From a virus: 21,164 bases of DNA. Shown piece by piece: positions 1,318-18,607 of the stretch. Below the pieces are notes generated by a model. The model was given only the letters and a program-made list of their open reading frames with translations. It was not told the origin of the DNA and ran no database searches. A program made the translations under genes and the position numbers. Location of the stretch: positions 1-21,164 of the IMG/VR virus record IMGVR_UViG_3300017727_000214, one strand, 5' to 3'. Position 1 is the first letter of the stretch. Each line of letters begins with the position of its first letter.

Positions 1318-1566
1318 TCAATTAAGCACTCCCCATCGTTTTCTCATTGACGCTTGTTCGTCTCTTTTTGCTTGAATCTTTCTTCGTCTTGTTATTTCTT
1401 GATTCTTCTTATGTCTCTTCTGATTAGGTTTGACATAATATTCACGATCTCTACATTCCTGAATTATACCAGCTCTTTCTACTTGTTTCTTAAATCTGCG
1501 TAACATCCTGTCGAATGGTTCGACATGTTTACTCTTCGGATGTTTTCTTGGTTTTACACTTGGCAT
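1318..1566 (-). CDS. rpsU: phage-encoded ribosomal protein bS21
   Basis: This 82-residue basic protein matches bacterial bS21 through its whole core. [17 protein letters not shown] at residues 17-33 corresponds to the EPFDxALRRFKRxxEKAG helix, and the following REYYVKP corresponds to RREFYEKP. A long basic tail follows. bS21 is a small-subunit protein at the platform near the anti-Shine-Dalgarno region and affects initiation. Phage copies are known, especially in marine phages. Here an extra basic N-terminal segment of about 12 residues precedes the conserved core. AAGGA at 1572-1576 sits five bases before the ATG. The gene is preceded by a GC-rich 190-base leader after gp32. The protein could replace host bS21 in ribosomes to favour phage messages; that role is inferred. 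Confidence 0.95.
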
Positions 1567-1758: not shown

Positions 1759-2658
1759 TTAACTGTCCGAAGCTAATTTCTTGAAGTAATCCATTGCATC
1801 GTCACCAGTTTCACCAACTGATGCATCTGCAGATGCGATTACGGGTTCATCTGCAACGGAGGCAGTGTTTACATTTGCCCAAGGCACTTCTTCTTGGTCT
1901 TCTGCAACTGACTCTGCTGTAGAATTACTCACTCCACCTGATAGTCCTAATACTCTATCGAGTTTAGTTTTGAGTTCGTCATAAGACTTGAACTCATCAG
2001 ATGATATAATTTCTGATAGCGAATGAACAGAAGTATATATATCATTCAACTGATTTTCGTCATCAAAAAGTGGTGCAGCTCCATCGAACTCAGATTTGTC
2101 GTAGTTCCAATAACCATCAACTTTTCTGATTTTGATTTTGAAGTTAGCACCTTCTCCTCTCAAGTCAAAAGGATTGATTGCTTTCTCGTCCTCAAATGCT
2201 GGACTGATAGCTTCTTTTAACTGTTCAAAGATTTTTTTACCGTACTTGTAAAGGAATACTTTACCTTCGTTATCGGGATTCTTAGGGTCTGAAACAACAT
2301 AGACATTAGAAACATAATGAAGTCTACGCTTCTGTTTCCTTGCAATCTCTTTGTTTGCTTCTATCCCAGTATTCCATAACTGAGTATTGTACTCGGACAC
2401 AGGGTCTTGTTTATTAAGAGTCGTTAAAGACTTCTCAATATACCATCCGCCTGGCCCTTGAAATCCGTGATCCCAATATGAGACCCATGGCATTTCTTCG
2501 CCTTCGGGGGTTGGTAGAAAACGGATTATCGCAAACCCGTTACCACTCTTATCGAGTTCGGGTTTCCAAAATCTGTCATCGGAATAGGACTTTTTTTCTC
2601 CTTGAGTTGGAGACGCAGATTCCATTGCTGCGCGTAGTTTATCTAATGATGTTGACAT
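1759..2658 (-). CDS. 32: gp32 single-stranded DNA-binding protein
   Basis: 299 residues against 301 for T4 gp32, collinear over the core: SGNGFAIIRFLP near residue 38, HGFQGPGGWYIE near 64, NEGKVFLYKYGKKI near 130, and an acidic C-terminal tail ending DYFKKLASDS. gp32 coats single-stranded DNA in replication, recombination and repair and recruits partners such as gp59 through its acidic tail. The T4 zinc site needs H64, C77, C87 and C90. Here the His is kept but the three Cys positions read as non-Cys residues (the segment is DPVSEYN instead of CPVCQYI). Zinc binding is therefore probably lost. The basic N-terminal motif of T4 is also reduced. AAGGAG stands six bases before the ATG. Confidence 0.96.
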   Translation of the reverse strand: MSTSLDKLRAAMESASPTQGEKKSYSDDRFWKPELDKSGNGFAIIRFLPTPEGEEMPWVSYWDHGFQGPGGWYIEKSLTTLNKQDPVSEYNTQLWNTGIEANKEIARKQKRRLHYVSNVYVVSDPKNPDNEGKVFLYKYGKKIFEQLKEAISPAFEDEKAINPFDLRGEGANFKIKIRKVDGYWNYDKSEFDGAAPLFDDENQLNDIYTSVHSLSEIISSDEFKSYDELKTKLDRVLGLSGGVSNSTAESVAEDQEEVPWANVNTASVADEPVIASADASVGETGDDAMDYFKKLASDS

Positions 2659-9311: not shown

Positions 9312-9893
9312 TTAGGTCTCCGTACCGCTGAATCTTTTAAAATCTTCTTCCAAATCTTTCAGTTCTTGTTTGTGTTTTTGGTTCTCTCGATAGTTCTCTC
9401 GATGTTGTAAGGTGATCTCTGTCATGGTTGGTCGACTTGTATACCAGTTAAAGATGATCTCTTTGATTGTATCGATAACTTGATCGTATGATAATGATGC
9501 AACTTCTTCATGTTCCATCAATCCAAGATTCAATGTTACGATTCCACATCTTCGATCTGAGTTATAAACGAGATTGTCAGCGAGATGGTTAAGTGCAGCT
9601 TTCTGTGCAGAATACAAATACCCTTTTGAGATATTTGATTTTGCAGCTCGACTGGATATATTGATAATAAGTTTAGTCGAATCATTCTTCCACTCAGCAA
9701 AACAATCATTCAAGAGTTCTGTTTGTTTGAAACCGACATGGGCACAATTGATAAAGACATCAAAATACTTCCATGGTATGTTTGCATCAACTCTTGTTGA
9801 TTCCATTTCGATCTTTTGGTATACGATCTTGCCATCTAGTTGTGACATGATTGCACCAGCTAACTTCGTCTTACCTGTTATTAGGGCTCTCAT
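9312..9893 (-). CDS. short-chain dehydrogenase/reductase-like protein, compact
   Basis: 193 residues, shorter than the usual 240-260. A Rossmann start (RALITGKTKLAGAIMSQL) with a degenerate glycine motif, FINCAHVG in place of NNAG, INISSRAAK (S80/S81) and YSAQKAAL giving Y94 and K98 of the YxxxK dyad, then LNLGLMEHEE in the NPG position. These support an NAD(P)H-dependent SDR, probably active, with a trimmed middle and a charged helical tail. The substrate is unknown. The start lies inside the end of the upstream radical SAM gene (23-base overlap), so the two are coupled and may act on the same pathway. Confidence 0.82.
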   Translation of the reverse strand: MRALITGKTKLAGAIMSQLDGKIVYQKIEMESTRVDANIPWKYFDVFINCAHVGFKQTELLNDCFAEWKNDSTKLIINISSRAAKSNISKGYLYSAQKAALNHLADNLVYNSDRRCGIVTLNLGLMEHEEVASLSYDQVIDTIKEIIFNWYTSRPTMTEITLQHRENYRENQKHKQELKDLEEDFKRFSGTET

Positions 9894-10800
9894 AGTAATC
9901 CTTAATTAATTCAAATGATGGTTTACCAAACAGTGAACCATCGACACTACATTTATTACATGGTGACTTAGAACGGTCACCCCTCATTAATCGTCGCCGT
10001 ATCTTATTCATAGGTTTAGAGAACCATACTTCATGCAACGACTGTTGCAATAAGTTACCGACAACATGTTCTCTCCCCCAATCGTTTGAACAGAATAGTA
10101 CATCACCATTCCAATCAACGAACATTTTGTAGAACGGATAGTGACATGGTTTCCCTTGTAGCGATTCCACATCACTCTCCTCTACTCCTACCCAATCAAT
10201 CACACCTGATCGATTGTTTAATATTAATCCGTGTTTCTCAAAGTCTCCCCAATGCATACGATACTTGTATTTTGCTTGTGGTATCATTGCACTCTGCATG
10301 ATGGAATCAAAATGATCTATCTGTTCGACTCCATCATATAAGTTTATATAGAGTAAGTCTAACCCCGCTTTGAATAAATTAGTTACATAGACTGCATCTA
10401 ACTTATCACCGTTAGTGTTACATTCTATTGTTGCTTGTGGTAGATAGAATCTGAATTCCCTTACGATGTCTACAAAGTTTGGGTTGAGTAAGTTCTCTCC
10501 GAAACCTGAGAAAGAAATCTTTCCCTGATATTGATTGTCAGCTAGTTCTTCTGCGATGGTCGATGCACCTTTAATTGTAAGGTGCAATTGCCTATTGGGA
10601 AATACTCTTGGGTCATGCCTCGGACAAAAGACGCATGTACGATTACACAACTCAGTAGTATTAATTTCAACGGTGAGGATTGAATCAAGTTCATTTAAAT
10701 CATTACCTTTCTTATTCCAATGCTTCTTCTCTTGTTGCCTACGGTGATCTAGGAAGTCGTATTGGTCAACTGCTACAATTGGGATGTTTGACTTCGACAT
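9871..10800 (-). CDS. radical SAM/SPASM enzyme
   Basis: 309 residues. EINTTELCNRTCVFCPRH carries the CxxxCxxC site for the SAM-bound 4Fe-4S cluster (C52, C56, C59). FSGFGENLLNP near 98 is the usual GGE-like strand, and IECNTNG follows. The C-terminus has PCHYPFYKMFVDWNGDVLFCSNDW (C219, C237) and PCNKC (C281, C284), with GNLLQQSLHEVWFS between, the layout of a SPASM or twitch domain with an auxiliary cluster. Such enzymes modify peptides, sugars or cofactors; the substrate is not evident. AGAGGAAAGAC stands before the ATG, and the start overlaps the upstream gene by 35 bases. It is coupled to the SDR. Confidence 0.92.
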   Translation of the reverse strand: MSKSNIPIVAVDQYDFLDHRRQQEKKHWNKKGNDLNELDSILTVEINTTELCNRTCVFCPRHDPRVFPNRQLHLTIKGASTIAEELADNQYQGKISFSGFGENLLNPNFVDIVREFRFYLPQATIECNTNGDKLDAVYVTNLFKAGLDLLYINLYDGVEQIDHFDSIMQSAMIPQAKYKYRMHWGDFEKHGLILNNRSGVIDWVGVEESDVESLQGKPCHYPFYKMFVDWNGDVLFCSNDWGREHVVGNLLQQSLHEVWFSKPMNKIRRRLMRGDRSKSPCNKCSVDGSLFGKPSFELIKDYYESPNNR

Positions 10801-12588: not shown

Positions 12589-13107
12589 TTAGTTAATTGT
12601 TAGCTCTGGAAATGCCTTTTTGACTATGTCAAGTGTGACATTTTTGAACGGCCATTTACCATCTTTTACAAGGTCAATCATCTGTGCTTCATTTGAAGGG
12701 ATGCCTTCTAGTAACTCAATCCACATTGTCTCTCTACGAGTTTGTGGTACTTCTTCTGTCACAAAGTATCTGAACTTCTTATGTTCAAATCTCAATTGTG
12801 TTTCAGATAGATCACTTGCTGGTGCATCATTCTTATTGAATGGTGTCGGGCCATCAGGTAATGTACTATTGATTGTTGAATCAAAGTTCCACTGTAATAC
12901 TTTCTGTACTGCAGCGTTTCCTTGGTTAAACACTCTAATGCCATGTGCAGCTTTGTCTGCATCTTCCTGTGCAACAATATCTGCTTGACAAAGAACTTCA
13001 AACACATCTGCGTTCTTAGTTAGATTGACTCTCTCAGTAATCAATTCCATTACTGGTTTATTGGGTGAACCTTTAGGTCTACCTCTTCCTTTTTTCTTTT
13101 CGCTCAT
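12589..13107 (-). CDS. DUF6433-like phage protein with AT-hook-like N-terminus
   Basis: 172 residues. The C-terminal two-thirds shows the pattern I know from the T4-type phage family DUF6433: VLQWNFDSTINSTLPDGPTPF, then RFEHKKFRYFV, then RRETMWIELLEGIPSNEAQMIDLVKDGKWPFKNVTLDIVKKAFPEL. The family has no established function that I can name. The first 20 residues, KKKGRGRPKGSPNKP, look like an AT-hook, suggesting DNA minor-groove contact; this seems to be an added piece. The start overlaps the RNase H stop by ATGA, so it is the last gene of the 16443-12589 operon. The family assignment is from memory of the pattern. Confidence 0.75.
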   Translation of the reverse strand: MSEKKKGRGRPKGSPNKPVMELITERVNLTKNADVFEVLCQADIVAQEDADKAAHGIRVFNQGNAAVQKVLQWNFDSTINSTLPDGPTPFNKNDAPASDLSETQLRFEHKKFRYFVTEEVPQTRRETMWIELLEGIPSNEAQMIDLVKDGKWPFKNVTLDIVKKAFPELTIN

Positions 13108-13958
13108 AATGCAAAATCCTCTACATGATTTAGTAACTCATTTAATCTATGAGTTCTTAGGTAGTCAAATACTTTACCTCTTACTGGTGCTGTATTCTCA
13201 TACTCATTTATTATTCTATCAATTACCTCTTGAGGTATGAAATCAAAATCAATTAATGTTTGATTTCTTAGATAGTTCCTATAGTATTTATCATCGCTAG
13301 AAATAGTAATTCTCATGTACTTCTCTAGTATTGGTTTCCTTAATGGTGTCTGTCTTATACCTTCGTCTAAACAATTGTCGTTAGATAGAATGTTTGGTAT
13401 ACCATCTGACTTATCTCCCTTAAGGATATGTTCTTTTAAGAATGTCTCTGCACCACCTTCGGGTTCTATAAACTTATTTACATTCGGTGAGTATTGAGAT
13501 ATGTTATCGTATCTCTGTAGCTGTTGGAAGTCTTTATCTCCACTCACAATCAATACCTTTTCATTCGGTGCAAGGATGTGAGCATGTTGTACCATGACTG
13601 CAATGATATCATCTGCTTCACAATTCTCAACATACATGAAACGATACGGGAAGTTTTCTTTGATCTCTTGTTTTACTTTATGTAAAGTATCAAAGATCAA
13701 TCCCCAATCTTTATCGTCCTTGTCTCTAGACTTCTTCCTGTTTGCTTTATACAATGGGAAGTAGTCTCGTCTCCAAGGATGGGCTGCATCTGTACAAAGT
13801 ACGATCTCCCCATACTCTTCGGTATGTCTCTTCTGATAGTTTCTTATTGAATTCAGAATCATATGTCTTAACATATCTTCTGACAATTCCCCATTGGTCA
13901 CTTTTAATTGTGCCATCAGACCAGCAATTATGACCTGACTAAAATCTATTAATATCAT
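13104..13958 (-). CDS. rnh: T4-type RNase H (5'-to-3' FEN-1-like nuclease)
   Basis: 284 residues (T4 Rnh 305). Metal-site motifs in order: ILIDFSQ (D5), CTDAAHPWRRDYFPLYKANR (D57, R63/R64, K71), ENCEADDIIA (E114, D116, D117), VSGDKDFQQL (D141, D143) and KGDKSDGIPNI (D182, D185). This is the FEN-1/T4 RNase H family that removes RNA primers and some DNA from lagging-strand fragments, working with gp32 and the clamp. The C-terminal helical region is present. ATGA overlaps join it to the genes on both sides. Nothing is missing in the active site. Confidence 0.95.
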   Translation of the reverse strand: MILIDFSQVIIAGLMAQLKVTNGELSEDMLRHMILNSIRNYQKRHTEEYGEIVLCTDAAHPWRRDYFPLYKANRKKSRDKDDKDWGLIFDTLHKVKQEIKENFPYRFMYVENCEADDIIAVMVQHAHILAPNEKVLIVSGDKDFQQLQRYDNISQYSPNVNKFIEPEGGAETFLKEHILKGDKSDGIPNILSNDNCLDEGIRQTPLRKPILEKYMRITISSDDKYYRNYLRNQTLIDFDFIPQEVIDRIINEYENTAPVRGKVFDYLRTHRLNELLNHVEDFAL

Positions 13959-14680
13959 TTAACCACTTTAACTAATAATGTATTCTTAGTAATTAAATCG
14001 TTTCCGTCCTTCTCTTTTGATCTTGGTATTTCATCTAAGAACTTCGAAGCAATTATATTACCACCTTTATATAGTCTATCAAGCAAATCCAAATCTGTCA
14101 AGGTCTTTTCTTTACATGAATCAAATCCTGTAATCCTAGAACCTTTAACTTGTAAATGTCCTTCGAACCTTGTTAGTTTTTTACTTGATGTATTATATGT
14201 GTATAGTAATCTTGCACGAATGATCTCTTCGGGATTAATAGATTGGAAGTTGTAATCATCCTGAGCATAAACATTCAGGTAGGGTAACTTCTTAACTAAT
14301 TGTGCTGGTGTTTTGATTCGAACCTTACGAATCGGTTTGTATTCTTCACAATACTGTTCGACTTCTCTTTCCCATGTCTCTAGTTTTTTGATGACTCGTT
14401 TCTTTTGAGTTGGTTTAAGAAAGTTGTATGCCTCATCTAGCTGATCACACTTCTCTTCATTCTTTAATTCAAACAAATAGTTTTCTGCAAACCCTTTCAT
14501 GTAATGTACAACCTTACCACTGTAACCTAGTTGTTTAACATACTTGTACATAGAAAAGTTTGACTTGGTTGTTTCTAGAAGACGATCTATCTGATGCTCT
14601 ACTTCACCTAGAGCAACAAATGCTTTGTTCTGCATTCTCTCTTGTATCGATACGGTTTTAGGTGTCTTCTGTGTCATCAT
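13955..14680 (-). CDS. conserved phage hypothetical (241 aa)
   Basis: A helical N-terminal half (ERMQNKAFVALGEVEHQIDRLLETTKSNFSMYKYVKQLGYSGKVVHYMKGFAENYLF) with a KKRVIKKLETWEREVEQY coiled region, and a beta C-terminal half (RARLLYTYNTSSKKLTRFEGHLQVKGSRITGFDSC) ending in LVKVVK. The C-terminal half is of the kind found in small structural or regulatory proteins in marine T4-type phages; no catalytic motif was found. It starts inside the RimK-like gene (23-base overlap, no separate ribosome binding site) and ends with an ATGA overlap into RNase H, so its dose follows both. Confidence 0.78.
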   Translation of the reverse strand: MMTQKTPKTVSIQERMQNKAFVALGEVEHQIDRLLETTKSNFSMYKYVKQLGYSGKVVHYMKGFAENYLFELKNEEKCDQLDEAYNFLKPTQKKRVIKKLETWEREVEQYCEEYKPIRKVRIKTPAQLVKKLPYLNVYAQDDYNFQSINPEEIIRARLLYTYNTSSKKLTRFEGHLQVKGSRITGFDSCKEKTLTDLDLLDRLYKGGNIIASKFLDEIPRSKEKDGNDLITKNTLLVKVVK

Positions 14681-16070
14681 GTTTATTCGTCAATAAGAAC
14701 TTCCTTGATGGATTTATCATCAGGTTAGCTCTATTCATAAAATCTCTATTCGCCAGAAACGGGATATTCCCTCTCTGATCTAAACTAACTTCTTGTTCAT
14801 ATATAGTATTTAAGAAGTTTAATTCACACTTGACTACTGGTCTTTCTTCTGCGGGTTTAATTAAAGTTAACATTCTAAGTAAAGGTTTCTTATATTTTTT
14901 ACCATTCCTTTCAAAGTGAACAACCTTTCCTTTGACCTCGTAGGAGTCGGCGTGTAAGGCACAAGCCTTTGCACTGTTCCCAGTGTCCAGCTTTGCTGTC
15001 ATCGTCTCTCCATCGACCTCTATGGTCTCTAGAACGCCACATTCAGTTGCCTTCTTTCTCCATATATCTCTGTCAAAGTAATCGTCTATAATTGTTTCAC
15101 ATACCTCTTCACCCAATGCATCACTGATACCTTGAGTTCCTGGCGAATGATTTACCTCTAGAATGTAAGGTGCATCCTCTTCTCTATCCTCTGCTGGAAT
15201 AAAGTCAACACCTACCCACTGACCGTTGACAGCTTTTGCAGCTATCAAACATGTTTCTTTCTCTAGTTCTGTAAGTTCTATCTCTTCGGCTTCTGCACCT
15301 TGAGATATATTTGATCGAAAGTCATCAATGATTTTTTTCCTCTTCATTGCACCGATAACTCTTCTGTTGTTTATCATGACACGAACATCATATTCCATGT
15401 CGATGTATTCTTGTAATAGGATATCACAAGTTGGGTCAATCTTGTATACAAGACTCACCGTTGATTGTAGTGATCTCTCAGTCTCCACCAATAGAACTCC
15501 AACACCCTTTGCACCCTGTAGAGTTTTAAGCACCATAGGGAACTCATCGTCTAATCTCTTTGCAGCCATGTCGACTGTCTCGGGTTCTTCGTTTGGAATT
15601 AATACTGTTCGAGGTTGGTTCATACCAATCTCTTGAAGTCTTAGATAAGTTCTAAACTTATCTGCACATACTTCGATACACTCCCTAGAGTTTACCACTG
15701 GGAAACCGTATCGTTCTATTTGACTGATTAAATCTAGATAAGAATCTTTTGAAGTAACAGCTCCACGAATCATTATGATTGTGTCACCATCTAAATGAAA
15801 TCCTTTCTCATCATCTGAGTTGTGAATTGTGATTACACCATCGTCTGCTCTCTCGATGTATGCACCATTAACTCTAACACTGTAAACATCACAACCCGCT
15901 TCCTTTGCAAGACTGTAGAGTTTACTTGATGTTGAACTTGGTTTTTTTACAACTGGTTTATCTGAGTTCTTCTTAGACTTTTTCACCATGCGTCTTTCTG
16001 CTATCACCACTAGGCGGTAGGGTTTCTTGTTATCAGTTTCCTCACGGATAACTTCTGAAAACGAACGCAT
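14658..16070 (-). CDS. rimK: RimK-like ATP-grasp ligase fused to a RimB-like aspartyl protease domain
   Basis: 470 residues. After a RimK-type N-terminal domain come ATP-grasp motifs close to E. coli RimK: ADKFRTYLRLQEIGMNQP, VLKTLQGAKGVGVLLVET, LLQEYIDMEYDVRVMINNRRVIGAMKRK, DFRSNISQGAEAE, GVDFI and ILEVNHSPGTQGI. From about residue 345 follows a retropepsin-like domain of the RimB/DUF785 (PF05618) type: MTAKLDTGNSAKACALHADS (DTG at 362-364), RPVVKCEL and a final NRDFMNRANLMINPSRKFL. RimK adds glutamates to ribosomal protein bS6, and RimB-type proteins work with it in some bacteria. The ATG at 16070 is chosen for GAGG nine bases upstream. The target could differ from bS6. Confidence 0.92.
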   Translation of the reverse strand: MRSFSEVIREETDNKKPYRLVVIAERRMVKKSKKNSDKPVVKKPSSTSSKLYSLAKEAGCDVYSVRVNGAYIERADDGVITIHNSDDEKGFHLDGDTIIMIRGAVTSKDSYLDLISQIERYGFPVVNSRECIEVCADKFRTYLRLQEIGMNQPRTVLIPNEEPETVDMAAKRLDDEFPMVLKTLQGAKGVGVLLVETERSLQSTVSLVYKIDPTCDILLQEYIDMEYDVRVMINNRRVIGAMKRKKIIDDFRSNISQGAEAEEIELTELEKETCLIAAKAVNGQWVGVDFIPAEDREEDAPYILEVNHSPGTQGISDALGEEVCETIIDDYFDRDIWRKKATECGVLETIEVDGETMTAKLDTGNSAKACALHADSYEVKGKVVHFERNGKKYKKPLLRMLTLIKPAEERPVVKCELNFLNTIYEQEVSLDQRGNIPFLANRDFMNRANLMINPSRKFLLTNKHDDTEDT

Positions 16071-16104
16071 GTTTGAATTCCTCATATAATTGCTGTATAG
16101 AATG

Positions 16105-16112
16105 TATTTATC
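16105..16112 (-). promoter_or_regulatory. late-type promoter box GATAAATA before the RimK-like gene
   Basis: Minus-strand GATAAATA, seven of eight matches to T4 TATAAATA and an exact nATAAATA, the late form used in marine T4-type phages. It lies 35 bases upstream of the start at 16070, so a start site near 16099 would give a short leader with the ribosome binding site. It overlaps the stop of the preceding nuclease gene. Confidence 0.5.
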
Positions 16113-16443
16113 ATTTTTTGCTTAAAGAAACGAAATGTTCTGCGTCCACTAGGACTAATGGTTTCTGTCGATTCCTTTTGATGACTACCACTGGTTCGTA
16201 TCCTTTGCAGTTCTGTTCTGCCTGTGCATATGCTTCCCATACATTTACTTTCTCTTGATTCTTACATTCTACACTATAAGGGAAGATTTGTCTAGATTGT
16301 TTTCCTAAGATGATATCCTCACCTTGGGAACCCATTGGTCTAGACTCCAAGTCTTCTTCGTCAAGATTTAATTTCTCAACGAGTAAGTTTGCAAACCACT
16401 GTTGTAGCTTACGACCTTTCGCTTTTGCTGATGATGTTTTCAT
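16111..16443 (-). CDS. small PD-(D/E)XK endonuclease
   Basis: 110 residues: SSAKAKGRKLQQWFANLLVEKL helix, SRPMGSQGEDIILGKQSRQIF with D43, then YSVECKNQE giving E59 and K61 (ExK), and a helix WEAYAQAEQN followed by PVVVIKRNRQKPLVLVDAEHF. This is the compact archaeal-resolvase-like PD-(D/E)XK nuclease type common in phages (no extra domains). It may cut branched or unmodified DNA. The ATG at 16443 has no clear ribosome binding site; it follows the Fe-S carrier gene by 18 bases. It heads the coupled run that leads to RNase H. Confidence 0.85.
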   Translation of the reverse strand: MKTSSAKAKGRKLQQWFANLLVEKLNLDEEDLESRPMGSQGEDIILGKQSRQIFPYSVECKNQEKVNVWEAYAQAEQNCKGYEPVVVIKRNRQKPLVLVDAEHFVSLSKK

Positions 16444-16461: not shown

Positions 16462-16773
16462 TCATATATCAAACTGTACACTCACTCCACATCCACATGA
16501 ACTAACTTCGTGTGGGTTTATAAATTTAAAGAACTGGTTCAAACCTTCTGTAACAAAGTCTAACCTCATACCTTCAAGATATGGCTGACTTACTGGGTCA
16601 ACTATAAATGAAAACTTTCCGTAGTCTATTACTAGATCGTCTGATTGTGGAGCATCCTCTTTAAACACATATTCCATTCCAGCACATCCACCACCAGTCA
16701 CACCTAGTCTGACATTGTCGACTCCTTTAAAGATTAACTGGTTTATTGCTTCGTCTGTAATATCTATGTTCAC
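16462..16773 (-). CDS. iscA: A-type iron-sulfur carrier (IscA/HesB family)
   Basis: 103 residues. VTGGGCAGMEYVF provides C30 and SSCGCGVSV gives C93 and C95, the three invariant ligands of A-type carriers (C35, C99, C101 in E. coli IscA). The spacing and the helix TDEAINQLIF match the family, with FIVDPVSQPYLEGMRLDFV in the middle. These proteins pass Fe-S clusters to target enzymes; copies occur in marine T4-type phages. The start is a GTG immediately after an in-frame TGA, so no earlier start exists. Only a weak ribosome binding site is seen, and a late-type box ends six bases upstream. The radical SAM enzyme at 9871-10800 is an obvious local client, which is inference. Confidence 0.93.
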   Translation of the reverse strand: MNIDITDEAINQLIFKGVDNVRLGVTGGGCAGMEYVFKEDAPQSDDLVIDYGKFSFIVDPVSQPYLEGMRLDFVTEGLNQFFKFINPHEVSSCGCGVSVQFDI

Positions 16774-16778
16774 TCAAT

Positions 16779-16786
16779 TATTTATA
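16779..16786 (-). promoter_or_regulatory. late promoter box TATAAATA before the Fe-S carrier
   Basis: Exact TATAAATA on the minus strand overlapping the TAA stop of the carbamoyltransferase C-terminal gene. By T4 rules transcription would begin about six bases downstream, right at the GTG start (16773), so the message would be nearly leaderless or serve the genes further on. Confidence 0.5.
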
Positions 16787-17417
16787 CAGTGTTCCTGTTG
16801 TGAGAGGTCTCAAAGTTGCTATAATCTTTGTCACCTTTAACTTTAATAAAGTCTGTAGGGATATGTACATCCTGATCTTCGGGTACATACAGATGATTGA
16901 TCTCTGAATGATTACAAGTATGCACTGCATCATAGATCGTCTCTACCATAGATTCACCGTGTAGGTTAAAGCTAGTATTAAAAACAATAGGTACACCGTT
17001 CTCTTCGTACATAGCTTTGATAAGATTGTAGTAGTTTTTATTTTGTTCTTCATTAACTGTTTGTATTCTGCAAGTGTTATCACAATGTATAAGAGCAGGG
17101 ATTTCATCTAGTGCTTTCTCCGTACACTGAAATGCAAACGACATGTATGGACTTGACTTCAATTGTTTCATGTCCACATACTCATGTGCATATTCTTCTA
17201 GGATGGTACATGCAAAGGGACGATAGTGTTCTCTCTTCTTTACTGCGTTGACTATGTCTTTTGCTTCGGGATTGGTAGGGTCAAAAAGTATTGAACGATT
17301 ACCCAATGCTCTTGGGCCCCACTCGGAATGGTTCTGATAGATTGCAACGATCTGTTGTCTCTTTAATAAATGATCTACGACAACTGATTGTTCTCTGTGA
17401 ATCTCGGTAACGATCAT
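16782..17417 (-). CDS. carbamoyltransferase C-terminal subunit (NodU/CmcH family)
   Basis: 211 residues covering the C-terminal domain of NodU/CmcH/TobZ carbamoyltransferases (Carbam_trans_C): AIYQNHSEWGPRALGNRSILFDPTNPEAKDIVNAVKKREHYRPFACTILEE, then SSPYMSFAF, IPALIHCDNTCRIQTVNEEQN and GVPIVFNTSFNLHGESMVETIYDAVHT. In single-chain enzymes this part follows the Kae1-like domain and, in TobZ, carries the adenylation-type YrdC-like active site. Here it is a separate gene whose ATG overlaps the stop of the N-terminal gene by four bases (ATGA). The two would be made in equal amounts and form one enzyme. The Lys/Asp-rich C-terminus is a normal end, not a break. Confidence 0.92.
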   Translation of the reverse strand: MIVTEIHREQSVVVDHLLKRQQIVAIYQNHSEWGPRALGNRSILFDPTNPEAKDIVNAVKKREHYRPFACTILEEYAHEYVDMKQLKSSPYMSFAFQCTEKALDEIPALIHCDNTCRIQTVNEEQNKNYYNLIKAMYEENGVPIVFNTSFNLHGESMVETIYDAVHTCNHSEINHLYVPEDQDVHIPTDFIKVKGDKDYSNFETSHNRNTV

Positions 17418-18607
17418 ACTTCTTCTCCATGTTTTAATGCACGAGCTAATCTGATTGCACCACCCACTGCAGTTCCACCATCGTGTGCAACTGGGTCAAC
17501 AAAGATTTGATGATTAGGGAATGCATCGAGATACTTTGCATTGTTAGTACAGTTCAATGCATAACCACCTGACAAGATTATATTCTTGACATCAGGATTC
17601 TTATCCACTGCTCTTTGTATGATCTTACATGTATGATCGAAAGCTTTCTGTTGTAACTGATTACCTAAACTGTATGTGGTCATGTCAAAGTAACTCTCAT
17701 CTTCGTACCAGTGTTGATAAGAAGCTGCACCCATAACTTTACCCGCTGCACGACCAAGACGATCAAACCCAAAGAACATACTCAATGCACTAAAGATTTG
17801 TCCCATCGATGGTTTACTATTGAATACTGTTTCGACTCCATTCATATCTTTAATAAGATCAGGTGCCATCTGTACTCGTTCTCTAGACTCTTCATAGAAG
17901 ACATCACCTGCCCACATATCCAAGTAACGATAGTTAGACATTCTCTGCCATTGTTTCTCAGGTACGGTATCGGGTTGACATAGGTAAACGGTTTCGACTT
18001 CTTGATAGTTCGGGAATCCTTTCTCATGATATAACTTTGCACCACCACCATCACATACGATAGCAATTGCAGACTCTTTCTCTCTCCAAGGACTGAACCA
18101 ATAACCACACTCTGCATGGTAAAGGTGATGTTGAATTTCGTAAACAAACTCTTCGAGGAACAGCTGTTCAGCGACAGTAGAATGAAGGAAGTCGTCCCTC
18201 GCTTGTCCATCACACTTCTTAAGTTTATCTAAGTTAAACTCAGTAAAGATATTCGGGAATGTAGAATTAAACTCAATGAGTCTATCCTCAGTCATTTGTT
18301 CCTGTGCAATGAAGTCTAACAGTTGACGATTGAGTTTCTTATTGTATTTTAAATAGTCTCTGTTCCATACAAGAGCACCCATGTCATGAACGAACTCTCT
18401 TCGATCAAAAGAGCATCCAATAAAATGATCGGGTGTCTGTATGACTTCTCTATCGATACACAACAACTGATGCTGTGGTGGTTCGGGTGTCCATTGCTTG
18501 ACTCGTCTAAACCTTTCTTCTTCGAAAAGAAAGTCTAAGTCCCATGTATCAGAATCAAACTGACATAGGGATGTTTCGTGGGATGAGTTGTATCCAATAA
18601 TTTTCAT
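17414..18607 (-). CDS. carbamoyltransferase N-terminal subunit (NodU/CmcH family)
   Basis: 397 residues forming the Kae1-like half: IIGYNSSHETSLC near the start, FLFEEERFRRVKQW at 27-39, QHHLYHAECGYWFSPW (H160, H161, H164), AIVCDGGGAK, RAAGKVMGAASY and NIILSGGYALNCTNNAKYL...IFVDPVAHDGGTAVGGAI. These bind ATP, metal and carbamoyl groups in the family, which transfers carbamoyl from carbamoyl phosphate to sugar or nodulation-factor hydroxyls. The acceptor here is unknown: virion or host glycan, or a modified nucleotide, are options. No clear ribosome binding site; a late-type box AATAAATA lies about 40 bases upstream. Together with the next gene it equals a full-length enzyme (608 residues). 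Confidence 0.93.
   Translation of the reverse strand: MKIIGYNSSHETSLCQFDSDTWDLDFLFEEERFRRVKQWTPEPPQHQLLCIDREVIQTPDHFIGCSFDRREFVHDMGALVWNRDYLKYNKKLNRQLLDFIAQEQMTEDRLIEFNSTFPNIFTEFNLDKLKKCDGQARDDFLHSTVAEQLFLEEFVYEIQHHLYHAECGYWFSPWREKESAIAIVCDGGGAKLYHEKGFPNYQEVETVYLCQPDTVPEKQWQRMSNYRYLDMWAGDVFYEESRERVQMAPDLIKDMNGVETVFNSKPSMGQIFSALSMFFGFDRLGRAAGKVMGAASYQHWYEDESYFDMTTYSLGNQLQQKAFDHTCKIIQRAVDKNPDVKNIILSGGYALNCTNNAKYLDAFPNHQIFVDPVAHDGGTAVGGAIRLARALKHGEEV

What the first reader, a model, noticed from the sequence alone, without database searches (positions are those of the whole stretch)
14658..16070. RimK-like glutamate ligase fused to a RimB-like aspartyl protease domain in a phage
The protein has all ATP-grasp motifs of RimK and a DTG-containing RimB/DUF785 domain in one chain. 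RimK adds glutamates to ribosomal protein bS6, and RimB works with it in Pseudomonas. A phage bringing both parts in one protein, in the same window as its own bS21, suggests deliberate change of host ribosomes during infection. It is placed under a late-type promoter box.
Basis: partly seen in the sequence, partly recalled or inferred. Interest (0 to 1): 0.62.

Follow-up and report, generated by a model that had tools for sequence, protein, structure and literature searches.

The report
Phage glutamate-tail ligase–protease fusion
A marine T4-like phage carries one protein that joins a glutamate-adding enzyme to a protease of the kind that cuts glutamate chains; phage genes of this type were first reported in 2008, both halves look active, but nothing yet shows that the target is the host ribosome.

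Summary
A 470-aa protein (14658-16070, minus strand) joins a RimK-family ATP-grasp ligase to a C-terminal DUF785/RimB domain. The isolated C-terminal half passes Pfam's PF05618 cut-off and is predicted to fold as a retropepsin, nearest to the poly-glutamate protease RloA and then HIV protease. In 110 aligned phage relatives the catalytic Asp and two poly-Glu-coordinating arginines (RloA R114, R137) never vary; the matching lysine (K46) is kept in 107. Ligase ATP/Glu residues are also fixed. So a one-chain writer and trimmer of glutamate tails is the best reading.

The ribosome interpretation is only partly supported. The ligases form their own clade. AU tests reject placing them with characterised bS6 ligases (p 0.001-0.005) or with cyanophage RimK (p 7e-6). 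bS21 co-occurs in all long marine T4-like records, but each gene also occurs without the other. The 'late box' is absent from 83-89% identical relatives. The gene lies among replication genes, and the YerA41 homologue peaks in middle infection.

The kind is known: Monier et al. 2008 described marine T4-like phage RimK with C-terminal DUF785. Bacterial RimBK hybrids (opposite order) were assayed in 2025. New member of a known kind. Acceptor unknown.

The parts
14658..16070 (-). RimK-RimB fusion gene, 470 aa (ATG 16070-16068, stop 14660-14658)
   Evidence: translation and homologues starting at the same residue
15084..15665 (-). RimK-like ATP-grasp domain, residues 136-329
   Evidence: PF08443 2.2e-31; TIGR00768 above cut-off; structure match to Pseudomonas RimK 7QYS/7QYR
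14661..15059 (-). C-terminal DUF785/RimB-like retropepsin domain (Pfam match residues 353-460 = 14691-15014)
   Evidence: PF05618 28.5 bits for the isolated domain; profile hit to 9G59 8e-10; AF2 model matches 9G58/9G59/2PMA and HIV protease
14979..14987 (-). DTG active-site motif, D362-T363-G364
   Evidence: D, T and G each in 110 of 110 aligned sequences
16079..16083 (-). GAGGA ribosome-binding site
   Evidence: sequence; gaggaat-like stretch upstream of most close relatives
16105..16112 (-). GATAAATA box claimed as late promoter; not conserved, chance-level
16111..16443 (-). RusA-like resolvase gene, usual upstream neighbour
   Evidence: phrog_244; found upstream in 47 clade-A loci
13955..14680 (-). 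downstream neighbour, phrog_11903, unknown function; overlaps the end of the fusion gene
   Evidence: next gene in 50 of 53 clade-A loci
13104..13958 (-). RNase H-like exonuclease gene (phrog_107)
   Evidence: second downstream gene in 51 clade-A loci
1759..2658 (-). gp32-like single-strand DNA-binding protein
   Evidence: phrog_224 3e-104; nearest isolates Melnitz, Mosig, HTVC008M, cyanophages
1318..1566 (-). phage bS21 gene, same strand, about 13 kb downstream of the fusion
   Evidence: phrog_21469 2e-12; PF01165 9e-17

Best explanation
A phage enzyme that both writes and trims alpha-linked glutamate chains. The N-terminal ATP-grasp half activates a carboxylate with ATP and ligates glutamate (inferred from family and conserved residues). 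The C-terminal half dimerises as a retropepsin and cuts poly-glutamate (inferred from fold and from conserved poly-Glu-coordinating residues). Joining them fixes the ligase:protease ratio and probably lets the protease domain set chain length or stimulate the ligase, as separate RimB does for Pseudomonas RimK. It is probably made with the replication proteins in the middle period. The acceptor is not identified. My estimates: host bS6 about 0.25, another host translation protein 0.1, a phage protein 0.25, free poly-glutamate or a small molecule 0.2, other 0.2.
For: Domains and folds. Catalytic and nucleotide/Glu-binding residues (K138, K182, D228, R230, R252, D289, E305, N307) fixed in 107-110 of 110 aligned sequences, 92 of them distinct. 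RloA's poly-Glu residues map to K360 (107/110), R410 (110/110) and R433 (110/110) with the same 23-residue spacing between the two arginines; in RloA these residues are modelled to bind poly-E, and R114A/R137A give the strongest loss of activity (PMC12239564). RimB removes glutamates from polyglutamylated RpsF and stimulates poly-Glu synthesis by RimK, and a bacterial RimBK hybrid has the protease activity (PMC11957791). Operon context is replication: RusA-fusion-phrog_11903-RNase H in clade A; clamp loader-regA-fusion-DNA polymerase in clade B. The YerA41 homologue peaks in middle infection (PMC7354516).
Against: The acceptor and the chemistry are untested. The ligase lacks residues typical of S6-type RimK at the acceptor groove (E. 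coli positions S7/R8 are A/E here, H215-R216 are S-Q), so its acceptor or chain type may differ. The Desulfotalea RimBK hybrid did not glutamylate the RpsF tested. Two relatives, Melnitz and L062, keep only the ligase.
Confidence: 0.65

Rival explanations
1. One reading: the phage adds and trims glutamates on host bS6 to change the host ribosome during infection, acting together with its own bS21.
For: RimK/RimB chemistry on bS6 is established in Pseudomonas. bS6, bS18 and bS21 lie together on the 30S platform, as described in Flavobacterium. bS21 is present in all long marine T4-like fusion records. Monier et al. 2008 proposed a role in translation.
Against: Not in the S6-ligase clade (AU p 0.001 and 0.005). 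bS21 and the fusion also occur apart. In 20 small alphaproteobacterial genomes (unnamed) bS6 ends in Glu in 7, and in none of the 7 with local GC at or below 0.31. The host of this phage is unknown.
Confidence: 0.25
2. It modifies a phage protein, possibly one packaged in the particle: the fusion polyglutamylates and then trims a phage protein.
For: The YerA41 homologue was detected by LC-MS/MS in purified particles and is annotated 'structural protein'. The fusion occurs across phages and its nearest relatives are all phage-borne.
Against: The YerA41 particle list also holds DNA polymerases, helicases and RNA polymerase subunits, so association is weak evidence. No conserved neighbour is an obvious Glu-ended substrate.
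Confidence: 0.25
3. It makes free poly-glutamate or a glutamylated small molecule (as in MptN, CofF or methylofuran synthesis) rather than modifying a protein.
For: Among curated equivalogs the ligase scores highest to MptN (140 bits), then LysX and S6 ligase, all below cut-off. Positions 215-216 (S/A-Q) resemble MptN-like proteins. Melnitz infects a Methylophilales host.
Against: E. coli RimK itself also scores 157 bits to MptN, so this is weak. Support for grouping with the LysX/MptN-like clade is only 31. The protease half argues for a peptide-type chain.
Confidence: 0.2

Closest known systems
Marine T4-like phage RimK with C-terminal DUF785 (Monier, Claverie & Ogata 2008, PMC2530865)
   Same: Same domain order, phage neighbours such as regA, marine T4-like origin, and the same suggested role in translation
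   Different: Theirs were metagenomic contigs, and DUF785 was then a domain of unknown function; here residue-level conservation, fold, tree tests and context are added
RimBK hybrid of bacteria (Desulfotalea psychrophila DP2392; PMC11957791)
   Same: RimK and RimB domains in one chain; protease activity shown
   Different: RimB at the N-terminus there, C-terminus here; cellular, mostly Flavobacteriales and Rhodobacterales
Pseudomonas RimB + RimK (separate proteins)
   Same: Both activities; fold matches RimK 7QYS/7QYR
   Different: Separate genes; RimK is a bS6 ligase; the phage ligase lies outside that clade
RloA retropepsins (9G58, 9G59; PMC12239564)
   Same: Fold and poly-Glu-coordinating residues
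   Different: RloA is secreted and not fused to a ligase
Pelagibacter phage Mosig 'putative glutathione synthetase' and Yersinia phage YerA41_066
   Same: Same two-domain architecture, 41% and 33% identical
   Different: Annotated otherwise; YerA41 lacks bS21
Cyanophage 'ribosomal protein S6 glutaminyl transferase' (S-RIM32, S-CAM8, S-RIM8)
   Same: RimK-family ligase in related Kyanoviridae
   Different: No RimB domain (about 295 aa), separate origin (AU p 7e-6), no bS21

Membership tests
RimK family alpha-L-glutamate ligase (TIGR00768/PF08443) | Profile score above curated cut-off | tested here: met
   158.5 against 143.4 bits; PF08443 109 against 21 bits
RimK family alpha-L-glutamate ligase (TIGR00768/PF08443) | ATP-grasp catalytic and Glu-binding residues | tested here: met
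   107-110 of 110 sequences at eight positions
Ribosomal protein S6--L-glutamate ligase (RimK sensu stricto) | S6-ligase equivalog score (NF007764) | tested here: not met
   85 against 331 bits; E. coli RimK control 670
Ribosomal protein S6--L-glutamate ligase (RimK sensu stricto) | Falls in the clade of known S6 ligases | tested here: not met
   Own clade, support 97; AU p 0.001-0.005 against joining
Ribosomal protein S6--L-glutamate ligase (RimK sensu stricto) | Glutamylates bS6 | not testable with these tools
   needs enzyme assay or mass spectrometry
DUF785/RimB-RloA retropepsins (PF05618) | Family profile match | tested here: met
   28.5 against 27 bits for the isolated domain; 32 of 33 relatives match at E up to 1; whole protein below cut-off
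DUF785/RimB-RloA retropepsins (PF05618) | Catalytic DTG and retropepsin fold | tested here: met
   110 of 110 DTG; Foldseek to 9G58/9G59/2PMA and HIV protease
DUF785/RimB-RloA retropepsins (PF05618) | Poly-Glu coordinating residues (RloA K46, R114, R137) | tested here: met
   107, 110 and 110 of 110
DUF785/RimB-RloA retropepsins (PF05618) | Cleaves poly-glutamate | not testable with these tools
   needs protease assay
Bacterial RimBK hybrid | RimB domain N-terminal to RimK | tested here: not met
   RimB domain is C-terminal
Phage RimK + C-terminal DUF785 (Monier et al. 2008) | Phage-borne RimK with C-terminal DUF785, T4-like neighbours | tested here: met
   paper

The most novel reading that the evidence does not exclude
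A phage-specific family of self-contained poly-glutamate writer-erasers, distinct from bS6 RimK, that tags a not yet recognised acceptor (host or phage) during the replication phase, with chain length set by the fused retropepsin: a phage-encoded reversible post-translational modification.
Probability: 0.35. Interest if true: 0.68.

Novelty: new member of a known kind. Interest (0 to 1): 0.42.

Why it matters
The phage genes have been on record since 2008, but the fold and poly-glutamate specificity of the protease half's relatives (RimB, RloA) were worked out in detail only in 2025. Read together, marine phages appear to carry, in one chain, the enzymes to add and remove glutamate tails, with active sites kept across the retrieved set of 110 sequences. 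That makes a concrete test possible: whether phages use reversible polyglutamylation, and on what. Cultured phages with the gene exist (Mosig on Pelagibacter, YerA41 on Yersinia ruckeri).

Tried and rejected
Late-promoter reading: rejected. Cyanophage origin: no psbA family match in 12 long relatives including a 146-kb record. Cellular fusions with the same domain order: every genome hit covering both halves lies on a short contig of a MAG that looks phage-derived. bS21 as acceptor: the window's bS21 ends ...GVLN, no Glu end. A clade-specific ligase signature (Q for R at E. coli position 216) was dropped as diagnostic because MptN-like proteins share it. C-terminal E-rich proteins in the 146-kb relative gave no clear substrate. 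Two paper look-ups failed because a term was too short.

Full report
WHAT IS THERE. The window is a 21,164-base virus record. The finding lies on the minus strand, ATG 16070 to stop 14658, 470 residues. An ATG five codons upstream overlaps the ribosome-binding site GAGGA, so 16070 is the better start.

BOTH HALVES ARE REAL. The ligase half scores above the RimK subfamily cut-off and its predicted structure is nearest to Pseudomonas RimK (7QYS, E 9e-23, TM 0.86 by target length; model pLDDT 84). The C-terminal half falls short of the Pfam cut-off when scanned in the whole protein but passes it alone, and 32 of 33 relatives match PF05618. A profile of the domain finds solved DUF785/retropepsin proteins (9G59 8e-10, 2PMA 2e-7, 9G58 4e-6). 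A separate model of the domain (pLDDT 86.5) matches these first and then HIV-1 protease.

BOTH HALVES LOOK ACTIVE. Across 110 aligned sequences (92 distinct) the ligase residues K138, K182, D228, R230, R252, D289, E305 and N307 are fixed apart from three rows gapped at K138, and the protease D362-T363-G364 is fixed in all. The 2025 RloA paper assigns poly-Glu binding to K46, R114 and R137 among others, with R114A and R137A most harmful. In the phage proteins these map to K360 (107 of 110), R410 (all) and R433 (all); the 23-residue spacing from R114 to R137 is the same. This mapping is my alignment-based inference. It is the strongest reason to think the protease half cuts glutamate chains, and so that the ligase half makes them.

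IS THE LIGASE A RIBOSOMAL RimK? The S6-ligase equivalog model gives 85 bits against a 331 cut-off, whereas E. coli RimK gives 670. In a 61-row tree the phage fusions, with Mosig, YerA41 and the ligase-only Melnitz, form one clade (SH-aLRT 97). Placing them with the S6-ligase clade is rejected (AU p 0.001 for the inner set, 0.005 for the wider set), and so is a single origin with cyanophage RimK (p 7e-6). Caveats: the tree used the quick search, the tested groups were named after seeing it, YerA41 is a long branch, and cellular sampling was about 50 genomes in each of three phyla plus a few others. The link to LysX/MptN-like proteins has support of only 31. RimK residues that touch the poly-Glu chain in the Pseudomonas aeruginosa crystal (S7, R8; paper PMC10092738) are mostly A/V/T and E/D in the phage proteins, while R64, R189 and N262 are kept but are shared with LysX/MptN-like proteins. 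The target therefore cannot be read as bS6.

CONTEXT. Two gene orders occur. Clade A (window): RusA-like, fusion, phrog_11903, RNase H, in about 50 of 53 loci. Clade B (Mosig-like): clamp loader, regA translation repressor, fusion, DNA polymerase; regA is upstream in 47 of 59 loci, many of which are short contigs. Both are replication neighbourhoods. The YerA41 homologue peaks in middle infection and was also found in particles, together with many enzymes. The late-type box is not conserved. The host is unknown: gp32 is about equally near Melnitz, Mosig, HTVC008M and cyanophages, and there is no psbA in 12 long relatives.

bS21. All five long records of the fusion clade tested (96-146 kb: G029, G032, G033, G042 and Mosig) carry bS21; in clade A it lies about 13 kb away on the same strand. 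But YerA41 has the fusion without it, HTVC008M has bS21 without any RimK, and three cyanophages have RimK without bS21. bS21 has been reported as core to pelagimyophages, so the pairing is weak evidence. Among 20 small unnamed alphaproteobacterial genomes, bS6 ends in Glu in 7, none of them among the seven stretches with GC at or below 0.31; this speaks mildly against bS6 if the host is of that type.

KNOWN OR NEW. Monier et al. 2008 already found marine T4-like phage RimK with C-terminal DUF785 beside regA and suggested a role in translation. Little et al. 2025 describe bacterial RimBK hybrids with the opposite order, protease-active but without detected ligation on the RpsF tested. The gene is a new member of a known kind. 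What this work adds is the poly-Glu residue match, the fold of the second half, the separate clade, and the replication-phase context.

VERDICT. Observation confirmed; interpretation partly supported. Most likely a one-chain glutamate-tail ligase and trimming protease with unknown acceptor (0.65). Shown: domains, folds (predicted), conservation, tree position, context. Inferred: both activities, timing, acceptor.

Noticed in passing
L056-L061 (genome contigs): Six MAGs named Sphingobacteriales, Saprospiraceae, Parcubacteria, Chloroflexi, Thaumarchaeota and Alphaproteobacteria hold short contigs with phage-type fusion genes (L056 is 88% identical to the window); probably phage contigs binned into the wrong genomes.
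   Followed up: partly
window 16782-18607 (-): A Nol-like carbamoyltransferase is split into two overlapping genes (397 + 211 aa); the 146-kb relative also has it in two pieces, while the PHROG family is one 528-aa protein.
   Followed up: partly
window 16462-16773 (-): Small protein with a Cys pattern like an IscA-type iron-sulphur carrier (phrog_17776, unknown function), kept upstream of the fusion in most clade-A loci.
   Followed up: no
window 9312-10800 (-): A radical-SAM-like gene (CxxxCxxC) followed by an oxidoreductase-like gene, both kept in the 146-kb relative.
   Followed up: no
L133-L135: Cyanophage RimK (no RimB domain) is a separate acquisition that sits beside cellular RimK in the tree, in different genomic places in each phage.
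   Followed up: yes
L061 2917-4312: The fusion gene in this MAG contig is broken into two frames (160 and 294 aa), by sequencing error or decay.
   Followed up: no
L043 (Mosig) 14445-16251: The fusion gene is annotated 'putative glutathione synthetase'; its start lies inside the end of the translation repressor gene (regA), suggesting translational coupling.
   Followed up: partly
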